Shown in pieces: positions 13,745-25,786 of a stretch of DNA of 46,082 bases (position 1 is the first letter of the stretch; the number at the start of each line of letters is the position of its first letter). The DNA lies in assembly GCF_000426225.1 (NCBI RefSeq), contig NZ_AUEY01000027.1, forward strand, positions 1 to 46,082, written 5' to 3'. Made by a program: the position numbers and the translations under genes. The notes under the pieces were generated by a model. That model saw nothing but the letters and a program-made list of their open reading frames with translations. It was not told where the DNA came from and did not search any database. The DNA comes from Desulforegula conservatrix Mb1Pa. GTDB lineage: Bacteria > Desulfobacterota > Desulfobacteria > Desulfobacterales > Desulforegulaceae.

Positions 13745-13901
13745 TTGGCAATGGTCATGATTGGCCAGACAGGAGCATGGGATAGAGATCTTGTGCGCTG
13801 GCTAATAATTCTATTTTTCATAAATAGCTGAAAATGTAAATATTTTTAAATAAAATATATTGAGCTGTATTTGTGGCATCACGATTGCATATAAACTCGG
13901 C

Positions 13902-15326
13902 ATGAAAAAAGGCATGGCAAATAAAATATTCTTTTTAATCTTTATAACGCTGACCATTAATGGTGTCGCCCTTGCTGGTGAAACCACGGCTCTGTCAGCA
14001 CCCATGTCTGCTTCGATCTTTAAAAAAATAAATGAATTCAGGGACGAGCCATACAAAAAAATTAAGGAGTTCGCCGAAAAGGAAAGAATTGCAGATAAGC
14101 TCCCGGAATGGGTTGAAGGGTTGAACGGAACGCGTCTTCCCAGGTTGAATTTTAATTCGGAGCTGATTGGCACATCCTCTGCTCATATAGATGATATGGC
14201 GAACAGAAATTATTTTTCAGAAAGAAGCCCGGAGGGCGTCGGGGTATCTGAAAGACTTGGGGCTGCCGGAATCAATAATCAGCTTTCAAGAGAATCAATT
14301 GGTATAGTGCTCTTCAGAAATTATATAGACCCTGTACTTGCCGAAGACTCTGTTTTTACAACTTTGATAAAATATGAGCTTTCAAAGCAAAGTTTGGGCG
14401 ATACTCTTGTATTCAATTCGGCGATCACAGATATGGCGGTTTCTGTCAAATCCTCAACATATAAAGTTCAGGGACGTTTTTTTAATTCATACATCGCGGT
14501 GATGGACGGAATAAAATCTGATAATAATACGGCACGTATGGAAATTGCTTCAAAGCTTATTGTCCTTATTAATCAGGCAAGACAGAAGCCTTTGAAAATA
14601 ATGGAAAGTCATGGCATGGATATTAGCTCATATGTAGAAACCCTTAGTTATGAAAAATCGTTTCCTTCTCTTTTTAAAATTGATTATAAAGCAGATGAAT
14701 TTACTAAATATGGTATAAATAGGTTGCCTGAATCCGAATATTATGGTATCAGCAAAAACAATATAAATATTGAACCCATAGTCAATTTCAGGACCTCGCT
14801 AATAAAAGATATTAGTCAAAATACCGAACCATCAGGAACTCAAGGCCTAAATCATTATAATGTAAACATGATCACGGAAGAGTTTTTCTCAGAATTGCTG
14901 AAATCAGATCTTTCGCCGGAAAATCAAAAAACAATTATTCTGAACCAGGATCTGAACAAAGTATATGCCGAGTCAAATATCAATCAGGTAAATGAAGGCG
15001 AAAACATAAAGTCTGAAATAGTTCTGAATCTTTCCGCGTGGAACGAAATATCGGAACAGTATTACTCAGCTGGAGTAATATTCGTGGATGCGGATGGAGA
15101 CAACCTCTATGATCCAGGTGAGGAAAAAAGCCTTGAGCAGATATTGTTTTTTGACAAAGGCATTCATGCAAGAACAGATTTATCAGGCGGATATTATCTG
15201 AATATAGATGATCCTTCTTTCTGGCTTGTGATATTTGATGAAGAGAAAGGCCTTGTCATACATCCTAACAAAATTAATGAGTTTAATGGATTTTCGCTTG
15301 TTGATTTGAATGCAATTAATCAGTAG
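13902..15326 (+). CDS. Exported CAP (SCP/YkwD-like)-domain protein
   Basis: A 474-residue protein with a signal peptide (MKKGMANKIFFLIFITLTIN, cleavage after GVALA). About residues 80-140 match the CAP fold: LNFNSELIGTSSAHIDDMA, then RNYFSERSPEGVGVSERLGA and SRESIG, corresponding to the H-S-x-D-M-A...Y-F-S-H...G-E-N-I pattern of YkwD proteins. The second conserved His is Glu here (FSER), so the canonical site is altered. Near residue 396 a DADGDNLYDPGE segment, then TDLSGGYYL, resembles the calcium-binding prealbumin-like modules of surface proteins. The ATG at 13902 was preferred over an upstream TTG because it opens the signal peptide. It is the first gene of a same-strand run of exported proteins. 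Substrate or partner is unknown. Confidence 0.7.
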   Translation: MKKGMANKIFFLIFITLTINGVALAGETTALSAPMSASIFKKINEFRDEPYKKIKEFAEKERIADKLPEWVEGLNGTRLPRLNFNSELIGTSSAHIDDMANRNYFSERSPEGVGVSERLGAAGINNQLSRESIGIVLFRNYIDPVLAEDSVFTTLIKYELSKQSLGDTLVFNSAITDMAVSVKSSTYKVQGRFFNSYIAVMDGIKSDNNTARMEIASKLIVLINQARQKPLKIMESHGMDISSYVETLSYEKSFPSLFKIDYKADEFTKYGINRLPESEYYGISKNNINIEPIVNFRTSLIKDISQNTEPSGTQGLNHYNVNMITEEFFSELLKSDLSPENQKTIILNQDLNKVYAESNINQVNEGENIKSEIVLNLSAWNEISEQYYSAGVIFVDADGDNLYDPGEEKSLEQILFFDKGIHARTDLSGGYYLNIDDPSFWLVIFDEEKGLVIHPNKINEFNGFSLVDLNAINQ

Positions 15327-15471: not shown

Positions 15472-15485
15472 GTTTTGGCCAAAAC
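15472..15485. other. 14-bp perfect palindrome in the leader of the surface-protein gene
   Basis: GTTTTGGCCAAAAC is a perfect palindrome 38 bases upstream of the surface-protein ATG, within a 196-bp AT-rich gap. A GGGAGGTGG stretch at 15411-15419 also lies there but leads into no convincing reading frame. The palindrome may be a regulatory site or a leader hairpin. Confidence 0.35.
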
Positions 15486-15522
15486 CAAAAAACAAAGACC
15501 AACATTTAAACAGGAGAAAAAG

Positions 15523-17388
15523 ATGAAAAAATTCCTCACAGGCATGGTTGCAGCAGCTACGCTTTTCAGCGCTGGCGCAGCTTTTGCCGCAAACCAGGTG
15601 CAGGTAACCCTTACCTCGCCAACAATCGTTAAAGCTGGCTGTGAAAAAGCCGGTTCAATCCAGTTCGCATTTGACGCTGGTACAACCATTACTGCAGGCG
15701 ACTGGTGGTATATGGACCTTCCGGTTAACGTATCTCTCTGTAAATCATACGATTATACAATAGGTGCGGCAACCACAGCTGGTGGTCAGTCATTCAATAC
15801 CACTACCGGCTTCATGACTTTCGCAGTTGGATCTGGTCTTGCAGCTCGTCTTCAGGAAAGCAGTGCTGCTACTGGTGTAACCGGCCCAATCACAGTTTCT
15901 GTAACAGGCCTTCCTGGTACAGCAGGCGGATATGGTGTTGGTTCAAACTGGGTTGACGCGAATGCTGACGCTATTATTGACGCCGGTGAAGTTACAGCTG
16001 ACAAGATGACTTTCAGAGTTGTTGGTGTTGCAGGAAGCCGCCGTATCACAGTATACGCTCTTGGTACCGCAGCTACTGATACTCTTAAAGTAACCAACGG
16101 TTACAAGATGAACTTCAAGATCATGGACGGAAAAGCGTGGAACGTAAATGGCGCTAACAGAAACCTTATCATGATCAACAAAGATGAAACAGCTTCTCCA
16201 TTCATTTTTGGTGAGTCAAACTACACTGGTACTTCTGACGAAGTTATCGGTCTTGATGACTCAGTTGCAGCAACAGAGCCAGCAGTTGAAAACACACTTT
16301 GTATAAATGCATCTAACCCTGCATTTACAAGTGACCTTGTATTCGTTTCATTTGCTTCACTTTCTGACAAGTTCACCTTCACTGGTGACTCCCAGATCGC
16401 ACATACTGGCGGAGCTGCTTCAATAACTCTCAAGAACTGCAAGAGCGCAGATGTTGACCAGATCAGCATTTCTGGCCAGAGCTCAGCATGTAGCTTTACC
16501 TATCTGTACACCAATGCATACAGCTGTACAGGTCATACCCTTTTCAACGACAACCTTCTCATCCAGACCTCATCTCAGTTCGGTGAACTTGGTGACATGT
16601 ATGAAGTTACAACCACAAGCATGACAAGCGGCGTATATTTCGGCGCTAACCCAAATCTTTGGGGTTATCTTGCAACTGCAGACGCATGCTCAAAAACTGT
16701 TGCTGGTATAGCTAAGGCTGCTACCACAACAACAAAGTATGTATCTAATACTGCATCAACCGTAGCTTATCAGACTGACAACAAATGTACCATTCAGACC
16801 ACAGCTAGATTCGACAGCGTAAAGCAGTCTGGTTTCAGCCTTGATAACAACAATGTTTTCCGTGTTGACCTTCCAAACATGATCTATGACACCGGAATCA
16901 TTGGAAACGGCGTTGAAGCAAAAATCAAGGTTAACCTTGCTAAAATACCTTGCGGACAGCTTTTTGAAGGCACTGTAACAATCGGTACTTTCGTTACAAC
17001 CTGTAGCTCAGCTACAACCTCTACTTCAGTTCTTCTTTTCCCATTCTTCCCTCCAATGGATCCTGCAGCGGCTCCTGGCTGGTGGGGTGGTTATGTAATC
17101 GTTAACGGCGGCGCAATTGCTGGTACTGCAAACCTTGTTTACGCAGATGCAGCCGGCGCAACCAAGACCTATACAACTCCAAGCATCGCAGTTGGCGCTC
17201 AGTTCAACGGTTCCGCAATTACTGCTGATCAGCTTACTGCTGGTACCGGTACTTTCAACACAGCCAAGAACTACAGCATCAAGGCATTCTGCGGTTTTGA
17301 CCATGCAGCTGGCTTTGCTTTCGTAAGCAGCCCTGAAGCTTCAGCAAGCTACACAGCATATGTTGATGATGCAAATAGATTCCTCTAA
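15523..17388 (+). CDS. Abundant-type exported surface protein, unrecognised family, cysteine-containing
   Basis: A 621-residue protein not assigned to a known family. Signal peptide MKKFLTGMVAAATLFSAGAA, cleavage after FAA near residue 23. The mature part is rich in Thr, Ala, Gly, Val and Asn and looks all-beta, with 11 spaced cysteines (GCEKAG, SLCKSY, NTLCIN, LKNCKS, SSACSF and others) that could form disulfides. A segment near residues 511-531 (APGWWGGYVIVNGG) resembles the WGG-type beta-sandwich units of the protein at 18213. The start is fixed by CAGGAGAAAAAG before ATG 15523. The strong ribosome binding site, a strong terminator and codon choice favouring C-ending AAC, GAC, ATC and TTC compared with the AT-rich neighbours all suggest high expression. 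It could be an S-layer or fibre subunit; this is inference. Confidence 0.6.
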   Translation: MKKFLTGMVAAATLFSAGAAFAANQVQVTLTSPTIVKAGCEKAGSIQFAFDAGTTITAGDWWYMDLPVNVSLCKSYDYTIGAATTAGGQSFNTTTGFMTFAVGSGLAARLQESSAATGVTGPITVSVTGLPGTAGGYGVGSNWVDANADAIIDAGEVTADKMTFRVVGVAGSRRITVYALGTAATDTLKVTNGYKMNFKIMDGKAWNVNGANRNLIMINKDETASPFIFGESNYTGTSDEVIGLDDSVAATEPAVENTLCINASNPAFTSDLVFVSFASLSDKFTFTGDSQIAHTGGAASITLKNCKSADVDQISISGQSSACSFTYLYTNAYSCTGHTLFNDNLLIQTSSQFGELGDMYEVTTTSMTSGVYFGANPNLWGYLATADACSKTVAGIAKAATTTTKYVSNTASTVAYQTDNKCTIQTTARFDSVKQSGFSLDNNNVFRVDLPNMIYDTGIIGNGVEAKIKVNLAKIPCGQLFEGTVTIGTFVTTCSSATTSTSVLLFPFFPPMDPAAAPGWWGGYVIVNGGAIAGTANLVYADAAGATKTYTTPSIAVGAQFNGSAITADQLTAGTGTFNTAKNYSIKAFCGFDHAAGFAFVSSPEASASYTAYVDDANRFL

Positions 17389-17542: not shown

Positions 17543-18205
17543 ATGAACTCTAACAAAACCATACAATTTCTGTTTATACTTTTATTCATAGCAATTTTTT
17601 GTGAGCCTTATAATTGTGAGGCATTTACAGCTAAGATTAAATCCTATTATTCAGGAGGGCCCGGAGGTAAATCCGGTTCTGCTGTGTGGTCTGTTGAGAA
17701 AACAGATTCTGATATTGTTTTCTATGACACGAATCAGTCAAGAGTCGTTAGTATTAAGATACTTGAAGGGACGAAACAGGCATCCACGATAGCATTTGAA
17801 AAACAATTGCATGATAATCTTAATCCTTTAGCAAAGACTATTAAAAAAGGAAAATCTGATAACGAAACCATGGTTTTTTTATCTTCGGGCCATCCTGTTC
17901 CATATGACTGGATTGATCCTTACTCAAAAATTTCCGGTGAGATTAAAGTGAGCACGCAGAGTGGTGCTACGAAATTTGCGAGAAGGGTAAAAAAGGAAGT
18001 TCAGTTTCTTACATATGCTGATGCTCTCCAGTCTGGTTATCTGATTGATGATAATTCCGGATATATTGATACATCCAAGACATTTACGCTTTTTACACTT
18101 ACGGATAATGGCAAGACAGTTCTTAAGCAGCTATGGCAGGACGAGGATTTTTTCTGGCTGTATGAGGAGACTGGATTAAGAAAATCATATTTGATGGGTA
18201 AGTGA
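17543..18205 (+). CDS. Small exported protein of unknown function
   Basis: A 220-residue protein, not recognised. It has a hydrophobic N-terminal signal (NKTIQFLFILLFIAIFCEPY, probable cleavage near NCEA at residue 27). The mature part is polar, with mixed beta/alpha character (SGSAVWSVEKTDSDIVFYD; FARRVKKEVQFLTYADALQ) and no catalytic motif I can name. It begins 60 bases after the terminator of the surface-protein gene and ends one base before the frame of the next gene, so it is probably co-transcribed with the genes at 18213 and 20624. Its position suggests an envelope or extracellular role; that is inference only. Confidence 0.65.
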   Translation: MNSNKTIQFLFILLFIAIFCEPYNCEAFTAKIKSYYSGGPGGKSGSAVWSVEKTDSDIVFYDTNQSRVVSIKILEGTKQASTIAFEKQLHDNLNPLAKTIKKGKSDNETMVFLSSGHPVPYDWIDPYSKISGEIKVSTQSGATKFARRVKKEVQFLTYADALQSGYLIDDNSGYIDTSKTFTLFTLTDNGKTVLKQLWQDEDFFWLYEETGLRKSYLMGK

Positions 18206-18212
18206 TTTGAAA

Positions 18213-20627
18213 ATGAGTTTAATAAAAAAATCAGCAGCAAAATTTGTATTATTCATTTTACTGTTTTTTCCGGTATCTGCAAGCGCATATACTGAAACTG
18301 CCTCAGCATGGCAGTCATGGTCAGGGTACTGGTGGCCATATATATATGGCGGACTTGCGACCGGCATTGATTACAAAGGCCAGCCAGCGCCTTTACAGAA
18401 ATATGAAATGCTCTATAATGCCACTTATAATGGCCCGACAATAACAGAATATACGGCACAGCATTACGACCCTAATGCATCATCGTGGTCAGGACTGTGC
18501 CATGCCTATGCAGCTGCAGCAGCCACAGAAAACCTCGATTTTAGCCCATGTGTCGTAGATAATATATTATTCAGAACCGGTGATAAAAAAGGTCTCATTT
18601 CCATGAGCCATGACAATGACTGGATAATGGGCATAAGGCAGGGTTGTGAAACACCTGATATCCTGCATTTCTGGCTTCTTTCAAATATCAGGGATCAAGG
18701 CAAAGCTATTGTTGCCGATCTTGATCACAGTTATGAAGTCTGGAATTATCCTATCTATAAATATAAAATGCAGATCACTCCGACTTCTGGCGGCGTAAAT
18801 GTCCAATGTACTATCTGGTACGCCAATGACCTTGTTTCTCCTGACTACACAGGAACAGATGAGAGAACCTCCTATTATGAATATACCCTATTTATGTCAG
18901 GAGATGAAATAACCGGGGGAGAGTGGACAGGAAACAGTGTTTTAAACCATCCTGATTTGCTTGTAATGCCTTTGTCTCCCCAATCAACACTCCCTTCATT
19001 GAATTACGACAAGGTGAAATCAATTGCCTCAAAGGTAGACGATGAGCTTGAGTCTGATTTCCCCGTCGAGATGACACCCGGCACGTACAAGCTTCTTCTT
19101 CTCAATGAAGATCAGTATGTGGTTAATCTGAAAGATGGTGAATCTGCAAAAATTTCATTAAAAAAAGAAGAAGGCTCCCTGGACATCACTTATGAAATAA
19201 AGAGCGTTCAAGGTTCTATTATTGGGAGTGATAGTCTGAGCGGTGAAGTAAAAAATATTACTCTTAATTCTGATGGAGCACCCTATGTTGTCACTCTTAG
19301 GCAAAATGATTATTCAAGCTTCGGTTTATATGAACTGAAATTTGATAAATTCAAAGCTTTCGAATTTGCCAATCCTCATATACATAAGGGAACATACTGG
19401 GGAGGCGTCGCGATAGTAAATAGTGGAACTGATACAGTAGATGATGTCATTGTGACCGGTTATAAGGATAATGGTGACCCTCTTCAGACTTATCTTGGGC
19501 CATTCTCACTTAATCCGGGAGAAAAAAAGACTGTTCTCATGTCTGACTTCACCCAACGAAATGTAGACAGACAGGATTTTACCGGACTCAAAGTTGCTTC
19601 ACCGGCAAAGCTTGATGTAGCTTATATGGCCGGCAATGCCAACAGGAATTTTCTCTCATTTCAGGATTCATCTTCATCCGGAATTCTTGTCCTTCCTGAC
19701 ACGCGATTAGGCTTTACTCCCATAAAGAATATTAACTGGGGATTGTACAATCCCGGATCTGGCTCATCAGGGATAAGTATTAAGCTATTTAAAAGTACCG
19801 GATCTTTAAATTCAACTTCAAATTTGTCTCTTTCTCCTAAAGAAATGAAAAACTATGCTGAAGGCGTAAATATGCCATACAGCACATCAGTTGAGGGTGG
19901 TTGGGCATTGATTGAAGCAGATGCTCCGGTATCAGGCTATATCCAGTGGATGGATAGCGGCGGCGTGAAGGCTGAAATGCTGCAACTCGTCAAGCCCGGA
20001 AATAATTTTGTAATTCCCCACGCTGTATCGGATGGTTTCTGGAAAACCAAGGTCACACTGATCAACGTATTATCTGTTCCTGTAAACACTGATGTATCAA
20101 TTATTAATGGTGGAACCACTGAGACGACAACTGTGCAACTTGCACCGTACGAGAAAAAAAACATTGATATAAGAAGTTTATTTTCAGCAAGTGATGATAT
20201 CTTTTCTTCGTCAATAATTTCGATAAGGGCAGATGGAAACATCGCCGGATATTTTACATATGATACGCCTTATGATTATATCTCTTACCCGCTACTTGAC
20301 GAGAGCGCAAGCAGGACAGAATTGATCTTGCCACATAGTGCGTCAGATAATGACTGGTGGACTGGCATCACTTTATGCAATATGAATGATTCAGAATCAA
20401 ATGTTCAGATATATGGATTCGGCTCAAACGGTGAGAATATAGGGTCACTGAATTCGTTCTGTAGTGTTCCCGGGCACGGTAAAAAGATTCTTACAGTCTC
20501 TGAAATTTTTGGTACAAATCAGGAGGCTGTAAAATATATAAAAATTATATCTGATAAAAATATTTACGGCTTATTTGGTATTGCCAATAACACGGTAACC
20601 AGGATCGCAGGAGGCGTGCTTGAATGA
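18213..20627 (+). CDS. Exported transglutaminase-elicitor-like protein with C-terminal beta-sandwich repeats
   Basis: An 804-residue protein. Signal peptide MSLIKKSAAKFVLFILLFFP, cleavage after SASA. The N-terminal domain has WSGLCHAYAAAAA (Cys96, His97) and later VADLDHSYEVWNYPIYKYKM; these match the Cys nucleophile block and the 'D....EVWNQP..Y' block of TGase_elicitor (GP42/M81-like) proteins, so a protein-crosslinking or cysteine-peptidase-like activity is possible. The C-terminal half has four related beta-sandwich units of about 60-110 residues (HIHKGTYWGGVAIVN; NINWGLYNPGS; IPHAVSDGFWKTKVTLIN; LPHSASDNDWWTGITLCN), each ending in a lysine-rich turn. ATG 18213 was chosen over the TTG at 18207. 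It overlaps the next gene by four bases (ATGA). The enzymatic assignment is moderate; the repeat structure is clear. Confidence 0.65.
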   Translation: MSLIKKSAAKFVLFILLFFPVSASAYTETASAWQSWSGYWWPYIYGGLATGIDYKGQPAPLQKYEMLYNATYNGPTITEYTAQHYDPNASSWSGLCHAYAAAAATENLDFSPCVVDNILFRTGDKKGLISMSHDNDWIMGIRQGCETPDILHFWLLSNIRDQGKAIVADLDHSYEVWNYPIYKYKMQITPTSGGVNVQCTIWYANDLVSPDYTGTDERTSYYEYTLFMSGDEITGGEWTGNSVLNHPDLLVMPLSPQSTLPSLNYDKVKSIASKVDDELESDFPVEMTPGTYKLLLLNEDQYVVNLKDGESAKISLKKEEGSLDITYEIKSVQGSIIGSDSLSGEVKNITLNSDGAPYVVTLRQNDYSSFGLYELKFDKFKAFEFANPHIHKGTYWGGVAIVNSGTDTVDDVIVTGYKDNGDPLQTYLGPFSLNPGEKKTVLMSDFTQRNVDRQDFTGLKVASPAKLDVAYMAGNANRNFLSFQDSSSSGILVLPDTRLGFTPIKNINWGLYNPGSGSSGISIKLFKSTGSLNSTSNLSLSPKEMKNYAEGVNMPYSTSVEGGWALIEADAPVSGYIQWMDSGGVKAEMLQLVKPGNNFVIPHAVSDGFWKTKVTLINVLSVPVNTDVSIINGGTTETTTVQLAPYEKKNIDIRSLFSASDDIFSSSIISIRADGNIAGYFTYDTPYDYISYPLLDESASRTELILPHSASDNDWWTGITLCNMNDSESNVQIYGFGSNGENIGSLNSFCSVPGHGKKILTVSEIFGTNQEAVKYIKIISDKNIYGLFGIANNTVTRIAGGVLE

Positions 20628-21682
20628 AATTGTTTAATATAACCTCTTTTTTTTCATTTATCATTCTGACTTTTCTTTCGGTAAACGCGCCGCAAGCGGC
20701 TGAAAAAGAGCTTGTTGTTGTTTTTACAGGAGACACAGCTGGTTATGTCGAACCATGCGGCTGAAGTCCCAAAAAAGGAGGACTGGCCCGGCGGGCCGCC
20801 TATATAGATAGTTTGCGTAAGGAAAACCAGAATGTTGTTCTTCTTGATTGCGGCGATATGTTTACTAAGTCGAAAAAACCGTCTGAATTAAGAGCAAAAA
20901 CGATTGCAAGATCAATGGATCTAATGAAATATGACGCAGTCAATCTTGCGGATGAAGAAGTAAATATGGGACTTTCTTTTTTTACTGAAACAGCAACTGA
21001 ATTCCATATGCCCATGGTTTCTGCAAATGTTAAGTTTAAAAAGGAAACAGACCGTAAGTTGCTAAAAACTATCATTGTCAAGAGCCTCAGTGGGCTTAAA
21101 GTAGGTATAACCGGTGTTACTCCCGAAGTTTTTTTTAAAGGGGACGTTTCAGATAAAAATAATCTGATTATTGACCAGGATATTCATAAAGCTCTAACCT
21201 CATCAGTGGCAGAGATGAAAAAAGAAGGCGCTGATTTCACCATTGCTCTTACTCATATGTCTAATGAGGCGGCAAGAAATTTTCTACAGCTAAATGACGT
21301 ACCAGGACTTTCTCTGGCTATAGGCGGACATGGCAGATTTCTTTCACCGGACGCTGTCAAAATCAAAGAAACGTATTTTGTCCAGAACAGCGCGTCAGGA
21401 GAACATCTCGGAGTTATTAAGGTCAGGTTTAATGATAAGAATGTCCCGGTTTCTCTTGCGTATAATGACGTTACTTTATCTATGGACCTGCCTGAGGAGC
21501 CTAAAATAGCACAGATTGTAAAGAATTTTGACCTTGAGAGTATCAAGATAGAAGAAGAATCCCGCAAGACAGAGGATAAAGTCAAAGAGGCCGAAGCCTT
21601 GAAAAAAGTGCTTGATCTTAAACCTGAGGAATTTGTTAAAAAGATGAAGGGTAAAGAAGGTCAGACAGTGCCTTTGGACTAA
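20624..21682 (+). CDS. Predicted selenoprotein: exported metallophosphatase / 5'-nucleotidase-like protein with in-frame TGA (Cys-Gly-Sec)
   Basis: One frame runs from ATG 20624 to TAA 21682 and is interrupted only by TGA 20762-20764 (codon 47). Upstream codons give a signal peptide (SFFSFIILTFLSVNAPQAA) and VVVFTGDTAGYVEPCG. Downstream codons give SPKKGGLARRAAYIDSL, then VVLLDCGDMF, ALTHMSNEAAR and LAIGGHGRF. This is the order of the UshA/5'-nucleotidase-like metallophosphoesterase family, where the TGA position is normally Cys in an EPCGC...GGLARR motif. Reading TGA as selenocysteine gives a 352-residue protein. A hairpin starting 21 bases after the TGA fits a bacterial SECIS. The last ~60 residues are a charged helical tail. 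The start overlaps the stop of the preceding gene. Alternatives are a nonsense mutation or a 3'-only gene, but the 5' part is too well conserved for the latter. Confidence 0.8.
20762..20799 (+). promoter_or_regulatory. Candidate bacterial SECIS element after the in-frame TGA
   Basis: After TGA (20762-20764), GGCCC (20785-20789), loop GGC (20790-20792) and GGGCC (20793-20797) form a tight hairpin. The apical loop begins with G about 25 bases from the TGA, inside the range reported for bacterial SECIS elements. An alternative fold pairs AGTCC 20765-20769 with GGACT 20780-20784 and GCGGC 20757-20761 with GCCGC 20795-20799, leaving TGA in an internal loop. Confidence 0.55.
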
Positions 21683-21812: not shown

Positions 21813-22292
21813 TTATTTTTTATTATTTACGTCTGGCTCCTGAGTCATTGTGAAAGGATTCTTTCTTTTGGTAAAGCTCACATGCCATTCGCCACTTTCA
21901 AAAAGCCAGTGCTCAAGTATTTCGGGCTCAAATTTGTAGCCCATCTGCATTGCGTCATATTTCACCAATACTTTTGCAGATTTACTGTCAGGCGCAATAT
22001 CTATGCTGGTTACCTTGAATCCGCCCGAAATCTGATATTCTTTTTTCCTTAGAAACATTTGCTCAGTGATCGTTTTTTTGTACTCTTCATCAACCATCAT
22101 ATAAATGGTTTTCATATCATGATTGATTCTAGCCTGCCATAGCTTATTTACCTGTAGTTCAAGGGCGGTTTTAAGAGCTGAATCATCAGGTTTTTTCATT
22201 AAAAGAAACAAAGAAGTCGAAATAATTACTAACAACAGAAGACAGCCTAATAATAAAAGAAACTTTTTGTTTTTAAATTTGAAGTCTGGCAT
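21813..22292 (-). CDS. Membrane-anchored protein of unknown function
   Basis: A 159-residue protein, not recognised by family. Basic N-terminus (FKFKNKK), then one TM segment (LLLLGCLLLLVIISTSLFLL, residues 11-31). The soluble part (LWQARINHDMKTIYMMVDEEY...VLVKYDAM...HWLFESGEWHVSFTKR) resembles small NTF2-like (SnoaL/DUF4440-type) alpha+beta domains. It starts directly after the stop of the upstream TPR gene (TAG then ATG), so the two form an operon and may interact at the membrane. Function cannot be assigned. Confidence 0.6.
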   Translation of the reverse strand: MPDFKFKNKKFLLLLGCLLLLVIISTSLFLLMKKPDDSALKTALELQVNKLWQARINHDMKTIYMMVDEEYKKTITEQMFLRKKEYQISGGFKVTSIDIAPDSKSAKVLVKYDAMQMGYKFEPEILEHWLFESGEWHVSFTKRKNPFTMTQEPDVNNKK

Positions 22293-23255
22293 CTATTCTT
22301 CACCTCTTAACCTGGCTTCAATGCTTTCTATGAGAGTAGCCGCGTTCTTGTTACCCATTGTCTGAGCTTTTTTTGCGTATTCAAGAGCTGTTTTATAGTT
22401 TTTTGTATCTCTGTATGCTGTTGCAAGGTTTATTACTACATTATCAAGGGTAGGCTTGCACTCAAGAGCTTTGGCAAACAGAGGAATAGCTTTCTCAGGT
22501 TCCTTTTTTGCCATATGAAGCGCACCTAAATTTGCATAGGATTCTGCAAACAGCGGATCAATTTCATTGGCTTTATTGAACATTTCAACTGCCGTTTTTT
22601 CGTCGTTCATCCCCATGGCAATAAGCCCTAATTCATTATATGCTGCGGTATTTTTGGGGTTAAGTGATACGACTTTTTCAAATGACTGCTTGGAGGCTTC
22701 AATAACACCAAGTTCAGCGTATATTTTACCAATTTCAAAATATGCTGTTGGCCCTAAGCTTGGGTTTATTTTAACCGCTGCTGTCATGGCATCAATGGCT
22801 TCATCTTTTTTGCCTGTAGTGCTTAGAATAGACCCCATATTAAAATGTGCCCAGTCAAGCTTAGGATTTATTTCTATTATTTTTTTATACTCTTTTATTG
22901 CAGCCTCGTTGTTGCCTGTTAATTGATAAGCTTGGGCAAGATTGTATCTTGCCATGATATCTTTGGGGTTCAAGGTCACTGCGGTATTGAACTCATTGAT
23001 TGCTTCCTGGTATCTTCCTTTTGTGGCATATCCAATACCAATATTCTGGTGCATCAGAGGTTTGATTCTGGGGTCAATCTTTACCGCTTTTTCATAGGTT
23101 TCCCTGGCCTTCTGAAAATTTCCTTCCTGGGTATATTTCCCGGCTTCAATCATGAGCTGTTTAGTATCTGGCTCAGCTGCAAATGCGTTTAGTGAGGTGC
23201 TAAGAACAAAAAAAACTATAAGAAAATTAATTTTTTTAAAAAAAGTGAATCTCAT
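22293..23255 (-). CDS. Exported tetratricopeptide-repeat protein
   Basis: A 320-residue protein with a signal peptide (KKINFLIVFFVLSTSLNAFA, cleavage after FAA near residue 27), then about eight consecutive 34-residue TPRs (for example YQEAINEFNTAVTLNPKD, NEAAIKEYKKIIEINPK, EKAIPLFAKALECKPT). It is a periplasmic scaffold by design. The gene downstream (21813-22292) abuts it and probably shares its message. Partner proteins are not identifiable. Confidence 0.85.
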   Translation of the reverse strand: MRFTFFKKINFLIVFFVLSTSLNAFAAEPDTKQLMIEAGKYTQEGNFQKARETYEKAVKIDPRIKPLMHQNIGIGYATKGRYQEAINEFNTAVTLNPKDIMARYNLAQAYQLTGNNEAAIKEYKKIIEINPKLDWAHFNMGSILSTTGKKDEAIDAMTAAVKINPSLGPTAYFEIGKIYAELGVIEASKQSFEKVVSLNPKNTAAYNELGLIAMGMNDEKTAVEMFNKANEIDPLFAESYANLGALHMAKKEPEKAIPLFAKALECKPTLDNVVINLATAYRDTKNYKTALEYAKKAQTMGNKNAATLIESIEARLRGEE

Positions 23256-24864: not shown

Positions 24865-24921
24865 TCATTCCGGCGGGGCCTGCGCCGGAACGACGAGAAT
24901 TGGACTTTTTGCGACTTTGTC
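24865..24921. repeat. Family B palindromic repeat, right-half fragment
   Basis: TTCATTCCGGCGGGGCCTGC, then GGACTTTTTGCGACTTTGTC. Only one hairpin and one outer arm remain. Its edge supplies part of the TGA stop codon of rsmA (24920-24922). Confidence 0.75.
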
Positions 24922-25786
24922 AAATCTGTTTTTCAGAAAGTCTGTGTACTTCATCGGACAGTCTTACAAAATCTGCCACAGCAAGTGTTTCTGCCCGCCT
25001 TACAGGGTCTATTCCTGATTTGATAAGCACTTTTTCAGCCTGGCCGTGGTCAAGACCCACAAAACCACCTGCAAGTGAGTTTTTGAGAGTCTTTCTTCTT
25101 TGTCCGAAGGCAGATCTTACTGTGTCAAAAAAGCACTTTTCATTTAAAGGCATGTATTGAGGTTCTTCAGGTATTGTTATCTCGATAACAGAAGAATCCA
25201 CATCAGGAGCAGGGAAAAATAGATGCTTCTTGATTTCTGCAAGAACCTTTATGTCTCCGCAATATTGAACCAGTACCGATATCCTTCCATAATTTCTTGA
25301 TCCTGGCGGAGAAGTGATTCTCTGGACAAGTTCTTTCTGGAGCATGAAAACGGCTTTCTTGAATTTTTTTCTGTTTTCCACAAGAACCGCAAGAATCTGT
25401 GACGAGATATTATAAGGCAGGTTACCCATCATGATAAATCTTTGGTCTTTAGTATCATGACCGTTTTCAAGCTCAGGAAGTTCAAAATCAAGAATACTTG
25501 TATTTATTATTTCCACGTTCGATATTGAAGCTGCTTCGAGTTCGGTTTTAAGAACTGGAATAATTGTCGTGTCTTTTTCAATGGCCACAACTTTTGATGC
25601 GCACCTGGCAATCTGGATTGTCAGGCTTCCAAGCCCGGGGCCTATTTCAAAAACAGTGTCCTGATCAGTTATGCCAGACCTTTCCACAATCATTTTTGAA
25701 GTTGAAGGATCTGAGAGAAAATTTTGTCCCAGCTGTTTTTTTGCCTTGAGACCGGAAGATCCAAGAAGCATTTTGGGTGAGGTCAT
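24920..25786 (-). CDS. rsmA: 16S rRNA dimethyladenosine transferase RsmA (KsgA)
   Basis: A 288-residue member of the KsgA family, normal length. AKKQLGQNFLSDPSTSKMIV is the conserved opening. VFEIGPGLGSLTI is the SAM-binding motif I, near residue 46. MGNLPYNISSQIL is the catalytic N-L-P-Y motif, near 125. The C-terminal part, FFPAPDVDSSVIEI and SAFGQRRKTLKNSL, is also typical. It dimethylates two adjacent adenosines in the 3'-terminal helix of 16S rRNA during 30S maturation. It is transcribed alone. The last codons read into a family B fragment, which provides the stop codon, so the native C-terminus may have been slightly altered. Confidence 0.95.
   Translation of the reverse strand: MTSPKMLLGSSGLKAKKQLGQNFLSDPSTSKMIVERSGITDQDTVFEIGPGLGSLTIQIARCASKVVAIEKDTTIIPVLKTELEAASISNVEIINTSILDFELPELENGHDTKDQRFIMMGNLPYNISSQILAVLVENRKKFKKAVFMLQKELVQRITSPPGSRNYGRISVLVQYCGDIKVLAEIKKHLFFPAPDVDSSVIEITIPEEPQYMPLNEKCFFDTVRSAFGQRRKTLKNSLAGGFVGLDHGQAEKVLIKSGIDPVRRAETLAVADFVRLSDEVHRLSEKQI

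What the first reader, a model, noticed from the sequence alone, without database searches (positions are those of the whole stretch)
20624..21682. Predicted new selenoprotein: metallophosphatase-like protein with Cys-Gly-Sec in place of Cys-Gly-Cys
Seen: one frame from ATG 20624 to 21682 interrupted only by TGA 20762-20764, with a signal peptide and FTGDTAGYVEPCG before it and SPKKGGLARRAAY after it. Known: 5'-nucleotidase/UshA-like proteins with an EPCGC...GGLARR motif carry Cys at this place, and selenocysteine replaces Cys in redox or metal-ligand sites of deltaproteobacterial selenoproteins. Inferred: TGA encodes Sec47. The hairpin GGCCC-GGC-GGGCC starts 21 bases after the TGA with G first in its loop, as expected of a bacterial SECIS. 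I do not recall this family being described as a selenoprotein. The ATGA overlap with the upstream gene argues against the upstream codons being chance.
Basis: partly seen in the sequence, partly recalled or inferred. Interest (0 to 1): 0.88.

Follow-up and report, generated by a model that had tools for sequence, protein, structure and literature searches.

The report
Secreted UshA-like selenoprotein without phosphatase centre
A bacterial gene that looks interrupted by a stop codon very probably encodes one exported protein with the rare amino acid selenocysteine; the wider family was already known, but this branch has lost key parts of its phosphatase centre and kept the selenium site, which points to electron transfer instead of phosphate removal.

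Summary
In detail: one 352-codon frame at 20624-21682, broken only by TGA 20762-20764. The selenocysteine reading is strongly supported. In 34 related genes of 27 genomes the column is TGA in 27 and a Cys codon in 7; the tree forces at least five Sec/Cys changes. selA, selB and tRNA-Sec are present; all 24 TGA-bearing genomes hold selB or tRNA-Sec. The window's hairpin is weak evidence alone; the 27 Sec genes as a set fold better there than synonymous shuffles.

The novelty claim fails: UshA-like selenoproteins with CxU were listed in 2008 (PMC2398784) and NCBI has two models. This protein scores under both cut-offs (156 of 275, 68 of 140 bits): a short, unmodelled branch.

New here: Sec/Cys stands in 33 of 33 aligned rows while the catalytic His (0 of 33) and GNHE Asn (0 of 33) are gone, though 11 of 33, this one included, keep other metal-site residues; 14 of 27 Sec forms lack a nearby Cys; 27 of 30 long relatives fuse the domain to four haem-binding motifs; the gene overlaps a transglutaminase-like gene. 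Most likely an exported seleno-redox module.

The parts
20624..21682 (+). UshA-like selenoprotein gene, 352 aa with Sec47 read through
   Evidence: model of the mature part (Cys in place of Sec, 11 sequences) mean pLDDT 83.7, pTM 0.82; best Foldseek matches are human CD73 ecto-5'-nucleotidase, E 5.6e-22, TM 0.73 by query length
20624..20701 (+). signal peptide, read by eye
   Evidence: no predictor was run
20732..20734 (+). Asp37, motif I Asp of metallophosphatases (the His two residues on is Ala39)
20756..20764 (+). Cys45-Gly46-Sec47 (TGC GGC TGA)
   Evidence: the column is Sec or Cys in 33 of 33 rows of A2 (codons)
20785..20797 (+). candidate bacterial SECIS hairpin GGCCC-GGC-GGGCC, 25 bases between the TGA and the loop
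   Evidence: same place and form in the Sec paralogue (L003); the Cys paralogue (L002) has none at that distance, though it can form another hairpin nearer the codon
18207..20627 (+). 806-aa protein related to transglutaminase elicitor (PF16683), overlaps the selenoprotein gene by ATGA
   Evidence: 18 of the 22 cluster members were aligned and 16 of these have the GxC cysteine; the other two do not align there
17543..18205 (+). 220-aa protein with a signal-like N terminus, no family match over cut-off; relatives in 8 of 34 loci
15475..17388 (+). 637-aa surface-type protein (by eye), no family match over cut-off; relatives in 7 of 34 loci
13860..15326 (+). 488-aa protein with a borderline CAP match (21.4 bits, cut-off 21.1); relatives in 4 of 34 loci
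21813..22292 (-). 159-aa membrane-anchored or lipoprotein-like protein (NTF2-like by eye), convergent here; a relative is the next ORF downstream in 17 of 34 loci, on the same strand in 15
   Evidence: a similar domain ends a Cys-type relative in L038 (by eye); no Pfam match over cut-off

Best explanation
The gene encodes one exported protein of the UshA/5'-nucleotidase fold in which UGA codon 47 is read as selenocysteine. Shown by comparison: the frame, the Sec/Cys exchange, the Sec machinery, and the loss of the catalytic His and of several metal ligands. Inferred: the Sec, paired with Cys45 here, is the working residue of a seleno-redox module outside the cytoplasm. It would be reduced and reoxidised through a Cys-Sec bond in a mobile loop and pass electrons to a partner. 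In most long relatives seen the partner is fused (a part with four haem-binding CxxCH), in others CxxC-bearing, thioredoxin-like regions follow, and in this short branch the partner is a separate protein, possibly the transglutaminase-like protein of the overlapping upstream gene, which keeps a conserved cysteine. My odds: Sec incorporation 0.95; phosphatase activity lost 0.8; redox role 0.57; the upstream protein as direct partner 0.25. On rechecking I found that 11 of 33 rows, not only the CGU rows, keep five metal-site residues, and lowered the redox odds slightly for that (from 0.60).
For: Sec: 27 of 34 genes have TGA and 7 of 34 TGC/TGT at one column; at least 5 Sec/Cys changes forced by starred branches; Sec and Cys paralogues in one genome in G000 and G302. 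Hairpin energy against synonymous shuffles: mean z -1.51 over 27 Sec genes, negative in all 27; -0.29 over 7 Cys genes. Machinery in the own genome: selB 381 bits, tRNA-Sec 77.6 bits, selA 604.6 bits, all over cut-off. selB over cut-off in 21 of 27 genomes with these genes; of the other 6, the five with a TGA form have tRNA-Sec at 76-77 bits, and G374, which has only a Cys form, has neither at the thresholds used. Lost phosphatase centre: in 33 aligned rows the DxH His is His in 2, the GNHE Asn is Asn in 0 and the catalytic His is His in 0, while Sec/Cys stands in 33; the own genome's canonical relative L004 keeps these motifs. Redox: 27 of 30 NF041198 loci fetched have exactly 4 CxxCH after the domain; G218, one of the 34, runs into three CxxCH before its contig ends; 6 of 7 PCxC/HCxC relatives of other phyla have a CxxC further on, by eye. 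The loop Pro-Cys-Gly-Sec-Ser-Pro is the low-confidence, presumably mobile part of the model.
Against: No expression, selenium or activity data. PMC2398784 counts UshA-like among the few major families without a conserved Cys-based redox motif. 14 of 27 Sec forms have no Cys within four residues upstream, so a Cys-Sec pair is not general. One long relative of 30 (L137) has Ser and Arg (CGA) in place of Cys and Sec. 11 of 33 rows, the window among them, keep Asp37, Asp78, Asp/Glu110, His211 and His236, so a single-metal site near the Cys/Sec loop is not excluded. No electron partner is known for the window protein. The window hairpin alone is not significant, and two of 7 Cys genes (G302b, G012) also fold better than shuffles (z under -1.6). 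Nine of 28 genomes with the 806-aa family have no short form; in the stretches fetched around those nine genes only one UshA-like gene turned up, of the CxxCH type, and in G059, G282 and G073 the 806-aa genes fetched also lie apart from the short form. The tree has four long end branches (G051, G218, G225, G360), and 42 of 500 label shuffles need as few changes.
Confidence: 0.66

Rival explanations
1. Selenoprotein, but the Cys/Sec loop is a ligand of a remodelled single-metal site, so that the protein is still a hydrolase (for instance of S-sulfonates, as SoxB is recalled to be) rather than an electron carrier.
For: Asp37, Asp78, Asp/Glu110, His211 and His236 are kept in 11 of 33 rows: 7 of the 8 CGU/CGC rows and L094, L095, L100, L106. 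SoxB is among the weaker profile matches (67.9 bits; 4uwq and 2wdc). The Cys paralogue lies beside a DsrC-like gene, named from its sequence by recall.
Against: In the 14 lone-Sec rows none keeps all five residues while Sec stays; the fusion to CxxCH parts does not suit a hydrolase; the catalytic His is gone in 33 of 33 rows.
Confidence: 0.22
2. Two genes or a nonsense-mutated pseudogene: TGA is a real stop, with a restart at the TTG at 20813.
For: Table 11 lists a 289-aa ORF from TTG 20813.
Against: TGA recurs at this column in 27 of 34 genes, in 24 of 27 genomes, and is exchanged only with Cys codons there; the first strand, motif I and the signal-like N terminus lie upstream of the TGA in the same frame; codons are under constraint on both sides.
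Confidence: 0.03
3. A structural or regulatory pseudo-enzyme: the Sec/Cys only holds a loop by a Cys-Sec bond, comparable to the disulfide that I recall in the same loop of CD73.
For: The A2 profile places a CD73 and snake-venom 5'-nucleotidase cysteine at the Sec column.
Against: 14 of 27 Sec forms have no Cys within four residues upstream; selenium is costly for a structural bond; the loop is among the least ordered parts of the model.
Confidence: 0.09

Closest known systems
UshA-like (seleno)protein NF041198 (CxU; the COG0737 selenoprotein of PMC2398784)
   Same: PCGU loop followed by GGLARR-like motif, UshA-like domain, Sec/Cys exchange; 156.3 bits over residues 12-272
   Different: cut-off 275 not reached; 27 of the 30 NF041198 loci fetched have four CxxCH behind the domain, absent here; the window gene lies beside a transglutaminase-like gene
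UshA-like (seleno)protein family 2, NF049981 (CxxU)
   Same: same N-terminal region, Sec in the same loop; 67.8 bits
   Different: cut-off 140 not reached; CxU here, not CxxU; none of 10 further short forms tested (without signal peptides) reaches it, the best at 82.4 bits
UshA / CD73 ecto-5'-nucleotidases
   Same: fold (Foldseek E 5.6e-22; A2 profile E 8.1e-44 to a venom 5'-nucleotidase)
   Different: DxH His, GNHE Asn and catalytic His missing; about 350 aa without a C-terminal nucleotidase domain match; CGU loop instead
SoxB thiosulfohydrolase
   Same: weak profile similarity in the metallophosphatase domain (67.9 bits)
   Different: far under the cut-off of 550 bits

Membership tests
Bacterial selenoprotein | in-frame UGA exchanged with Cys in homologues | tested here: met
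   27 TGA and 7 TGC/TGT of 34 genes; 5 forced changes
Bacterial selenoprotein | Sec machinery in the genome | tested here: met
   selB, tRNA-Sec, selA; selD not searched
Bacterial selenoprotein | SECIS hairpin directly after the UGA | tested here: inconclusive
   hairpin at a fitting distance, not significant alone; set-wide mean z -1.51 for 27 Sec against -0.29 for 7 Cys genes; SelB binding untested
Bacterial selenoprotein | selenium in the protein | not testable with these tools
   needs mass spectrometry or 75Se
NF041198 UshA_like_PCGU | whole-protein score over 275 bits | tested here: not met
   156.3 bits; 10 further short forms, without signal peptides, 69.7-184.4
NF041198 UshA_like_PCGU | C-terminal part with four CxxCH (seen in 27 of the 30 loci fetched here) | tested here: not met
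   no CxxCH in the window protein; counts
NF049981 UshA_like_Sel_2 | whole-protein score over 140 bits; CxxU | tested here: not met
   67.8 bits; motif is CxU
UshA-like selenoprotein in the wide sense (COG0737, CxU, PMC2398784) | UshA-like domain with CxU | tested here: met
   table passage; COG0737 itself was not searched
Active UshA/5'-nucleotidase | full dinuclear metal ligands and catalytic His | tested here: not met
   window protein lacks the DxH His, GNHE Asn and catalytic His but keeps Asp37, Asp78, His211 and His236; equivalences, UshA numbering recalled
Metallophos (PF00149) | gathering score 21.5 | tested here: met
   22.2 bits, barely; 9 of 33 A2 rows match at E 0.01

The most novel reading that the evidence does not exclude
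A metallophosphatase fold has been rebuilt into a selenium redox module: the phosphatase centre decayed while one Sec/Cys, in half of the Sec forms without a Cys nearby, became the one reactive residue kept throughout, and the module was then joined to different extracytoplasmic electron or thiol systems (multihaem cytochrome parts, thioredoxin-like regions, a transglutaminase-like surface system). That would be a redox enzyme class on a fold not known for it.
Probability: 0.43. Interest if true: 0.65.

Novelty: new variant of a known kind. Interest (0 to 1): 0.42.

Why it matters
Annotation that relies on the two NCBI models would miss this branch, since the protein scores under both, and would be likely to cut its genes at the UGA; an alignment such as A2 would help to recover them. 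The comparison also gives what is, as far as my searches show, a first lead to what the UshA-like selenoproteins known since 2008 do: fold kept, catalytic residues lost, Sec kept, fusion to haem-binding parts. That makes a direct test possible: redox potential and cytochrome coupling of the purified domain.

Tried and rejected
Pseudogene or ordinary stop: rejected on the recurrence of TGA/Cys at one column. TGA as Trp: rejected, as the exchange seen is with Cys only and the genome has the Sec machinery. Rfam over the window: no match at gathering score; no tRNA in the window. SECIS significance for the window gene alone: not reached. The named-genome scan with a three-row alignment gave 11 relatives, some of them canonical nucleotidases. 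The class-wide search largely repeated the order-wide one and added no short form at its threshold. Stretches around the 806-aa gene of nine genomes without a short form, and four more stretches of G059, G282 and G073, were fetched to look for missed short forms: only a CxxCH-type gene in G341 turned up, so the link is an association, not a rule. First motif extraction from the NF041198 loci missed 15 of 30 and was replaced by a profile search that found all 30. The cysteine motif first looked absent in 11 of 18 upstream-type proteins because the pattern was too strict; the alignment shows it in 16 of 18.

Rows dropped: I took every match with an open frame of at most 439 aa (33 genes) and left out the longer ones, mostly canonical nucleotidases; one (L038, 497 aa) is a Cys-type relative with an extra domain. 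G218 is in the 34 but not in A2, because it runs on into a cytochrome part. The third own paralogue (L003) was read through a second TGA, very probably its true stop, in alignment A1, and was cut before it from A2 on.
Full report
WHAT IS THERE. The frame is as reported: ATG 20624, TAA 21680-21682, a single in-frame TGA at 20762-20764 (codon 47) and an ATGA overlap with the gene upstream. Read through, it is a 352-residue protein with a signal peptide (judged by eye). Pfam gives only a borderline Metallophos match (22.2 bits, cut-off 21.5). NCBIfam gives UshA_like_PCGU (NF041198, 156.3 bits, cut-off 275) and UshA_like_Sel_2 (NF049981, 67.8 bits, cut-off 140), both under their cut-offs.

RELATIVES. 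The own genome (4.47 Mb, 178 contigs, 96% complete) holds three of these genes: the window's (CGU), one with CGC and no stop (48% identity) and one with CGU and TGA (43%), plus a canonical 5'-nucleotidase-like gene (sequences). An order-wide search of 389 genomes found 59 with a match at E 1e-20 or better. I took every match with an open frame of at most 439 aa (33 genes, own three included), added one (G051), and worked with 34 genes from 27 genomes. One contig of G077 is the same as a named Desulfobacterales MAG record (L047: same length of 15,376 bases and same protein), and G077 is in the window's order, so the window very probably comes from Desulfobacterales or near; this is an inference.

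SELENOCYSTEINE. At the codon-47 column the 34 genes have TGA 27 times, TGC 4 times and TGT 3 times. On a tree built with that position masked, starred branches force at least five changes between Sec and Cys, including inside the three own paralogues and between the two of G302. The tree warns of four long end branches (G051, G218, G225, G360), and 42 of 500 label shuffles need as few changes, so Sec and Cys are hardly clustered on it. The own genome has selB, tRNA-Sec and selA over cut-off. Of the 27 genomes, 21 have selB over cut-off (E up to 1e-60). The other six were searched for tRNA-Sec: the five that carry a TGA form have it at 76-77 bits; G374, whose only form is Cys, has none over cut-off. 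So 24 of 24 TGA-bearing genomes hold selB or tRNA-Sec. G012 and G225 are Cys-only genomes that do have selB.

SECIS. The hairpin in the window is at a fitting distance (25 bases between UGA and loop), but is not significant by itself (z -0.71; 6% of synonymous shuffles). Over the set, the best hairpin in the allowed range is stronger than the mean of its synonymous shuffles in all 27 Sec genes (mean z -1.51) and not clearly so in 7 Cys genes (mean -0.29; two of the seven, G302b and G012, have z under -1.6). These genes are related, so the values are not independent. Two arrangements occur: a GGCCC-type stem with 24-28 bases before the loop in the nine CGU and CxGU genes of the short forms, and a CGGGC-type stem with about 18-21 bases before the loop in most others.

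MOTIF. Of 27 Sec genes, 7 have CxU, 6 have CxxU and 14 have no Cys in the four residues upstream. Three of the seven Cys genes have GCC, where the second Cys follows instead of precedes.

PHOSPHATASE CENTRE. The fold is that of 5'-nucleotidases (Foldseek to CD73; profile to solved 5'-nucleotidases). In the 33-row alignment A2 (26 Sec, 7 Cys) the Sec/Cys column is filled 33 of 33 times, and Gly52, Gly53, Arg56, Gly77, Asn135 and Gly164 are invariant too. The equivalents of the metal and catalytic residues are not: motif I Asp 22 of 33, DxH His 2, motif II Asp 14, GNHE Asn 0, catalytic His 0, the two later His 16 and 14. UshA residue numbers are recalled; the equivalences rest. Eleven rows keep Asp37, Asp78, Asp/Glu110, His211 and His236 together: 7 of the 8 CGU/CGC rows, the window among them, and L094, L095, L100 and L106. 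None of the 14 lone-Sec rows does. So a single-metal reading stays open for the window's side of the family. I first wrote this up as a feature of the CGU rows alone; the recount moved my odds slightly (redox 0.60 to 0.57, metal-site rival 0.18 to 0.22, overall 0.70 to 0.66, novel case 0.45 to 0.43).

LONG RELATIVES. A phylum search with NF041198 gave matches in 184 of 395 genomes at E 1e-25, 68 over the cut-off. Of the 30 loci that the search returned from the top of its list (one per genome), 29 have Sec in the loop and one (L137) has Ser and Arg (CGA) in place of Cys and Sec. 27 of 30 have exactly four CxxCH after the domain and three have none; I call the former tetrahaem by that count alone. 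Of seven relatives in Omnitrophota, Chitinispirillia and Planctomycetota with PCxC or HCxC, six have a CxxC further on in thioredoxin-like surroundings (by eye, no family search of those parts). These fusions are the main ground for a redox role.

NEIGHBOURHOOD. Neighbours were called mechanically as ORFs and grouped by BLAST. Among the 34 loci, many cut by contig ends, members of the group of the upstream 806-aa protein stand within four ORFs in 18 (some share only part of it), and relatives of the 159-aa protein are the next ORF downstream in 17. The 806-aa family occurs in 28 of 389 genomes of the order: 18 of the 26 genomes with a short form (own genome included) and 10 of the 363 others, Fisher P 3.8e-18, without correction for kinship. 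One of those ten, G051, has a short form found only. Against the link: around the 806-aa gene of the other nine only one UshA-like gene was found, of the CxxCH type (G341), and in G059, G282 and G073 the 806-aa genes fetched lie apart from the short form. The 806-aa protein resembles transglutaminase elicitor (PF16683, E 1.7e-11; PDB 3tw5, E 0.00037). Its GxC cysteine stands in 16 of 18 members aligned, out of 22 in the group; the other two do not align there. Whether that Cys matches the catalytic one was not tested.

MECHANISM. Shown: gene, Sec/Cys exchange, machinery, loss of catalytic residues, fusions and linkage. Inferred: export; a seleno-redox function in the mobile loop; exchange of electrons with haem or thiols; in this operon perhaps with the transglutaminase-like protein or the surface proteins made with it.

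LITERATURE. PMC2398784 (passages) lists 'COG0737, UshA-like', CxU, with 76 selenoproteins and 92 Cys homologues in ocean data, and names it among the few major families without a conserved Cys-based redox motif, which speaks against my redox reading. PMC9312934 (table passage) lists it; PMC13188914 (passages) lists it with NF041198, and family 2 with NF049981. PMC12013277 does not contain the words searched. Searches for selenoprotein with UshA, UshA-like with selenocysteine, NCBIfam, multiheme with nucleotidase, metallophosphoesterase and tetraheme showed, in listings and the starts of abstracts, no paper on the lost phosphatase centre or the cytochrome fusion; most subscription papers are not held.

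Noticed in passing
L002 573-893 and 906-1295: The Cys-type paralogue of the own genome lies next to a DsrC-like and an IscA/HesB-like gene (named from the sequences by recall), which hints at sulfur metabolism.
   Followed up: no
L038 (G031:C836): A Cys-type UshA-like domain is followed by a C-terminal domain resembling the 159-aa protein that sits beside the window gene (by eye).
   Followed up: partly
L137 (G503:C168): A four-CxxCH UshA-like protein with Ser and Arg (CGA) at the Cys and Sec places, the only one of 30.
   Followed up: partly
L048-L052, L056, L057: Omnitrophota, Chitinispirillia and Planctomycetota proteins join a PCxC or HCxC UshA-like domain to long C-terminal parts; six of the seven have a CxxC in thioredoxin-like surroundings (by eye), L052 does not.
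   Followed up: no
L116 (G218) and L162 (G341): Sec-type UshA-like domains followed by CxxCH motifs in the same order; in L162 near an 806-aa family gene.
   Followed up: partly
G116a, G012, G374 (L093, L094, L100): A Cys branch with GCC instead of CGU: the second Cys stands one after the Sec place instead of two before.
   Followed up: no
window 24920-25786 and 22293-23255: An rRNA adenine dimethylase gene and a TPR protein gene follow the cluster; the group of the TPR protein has members in 7 of 34 loci.
   Followed up: no
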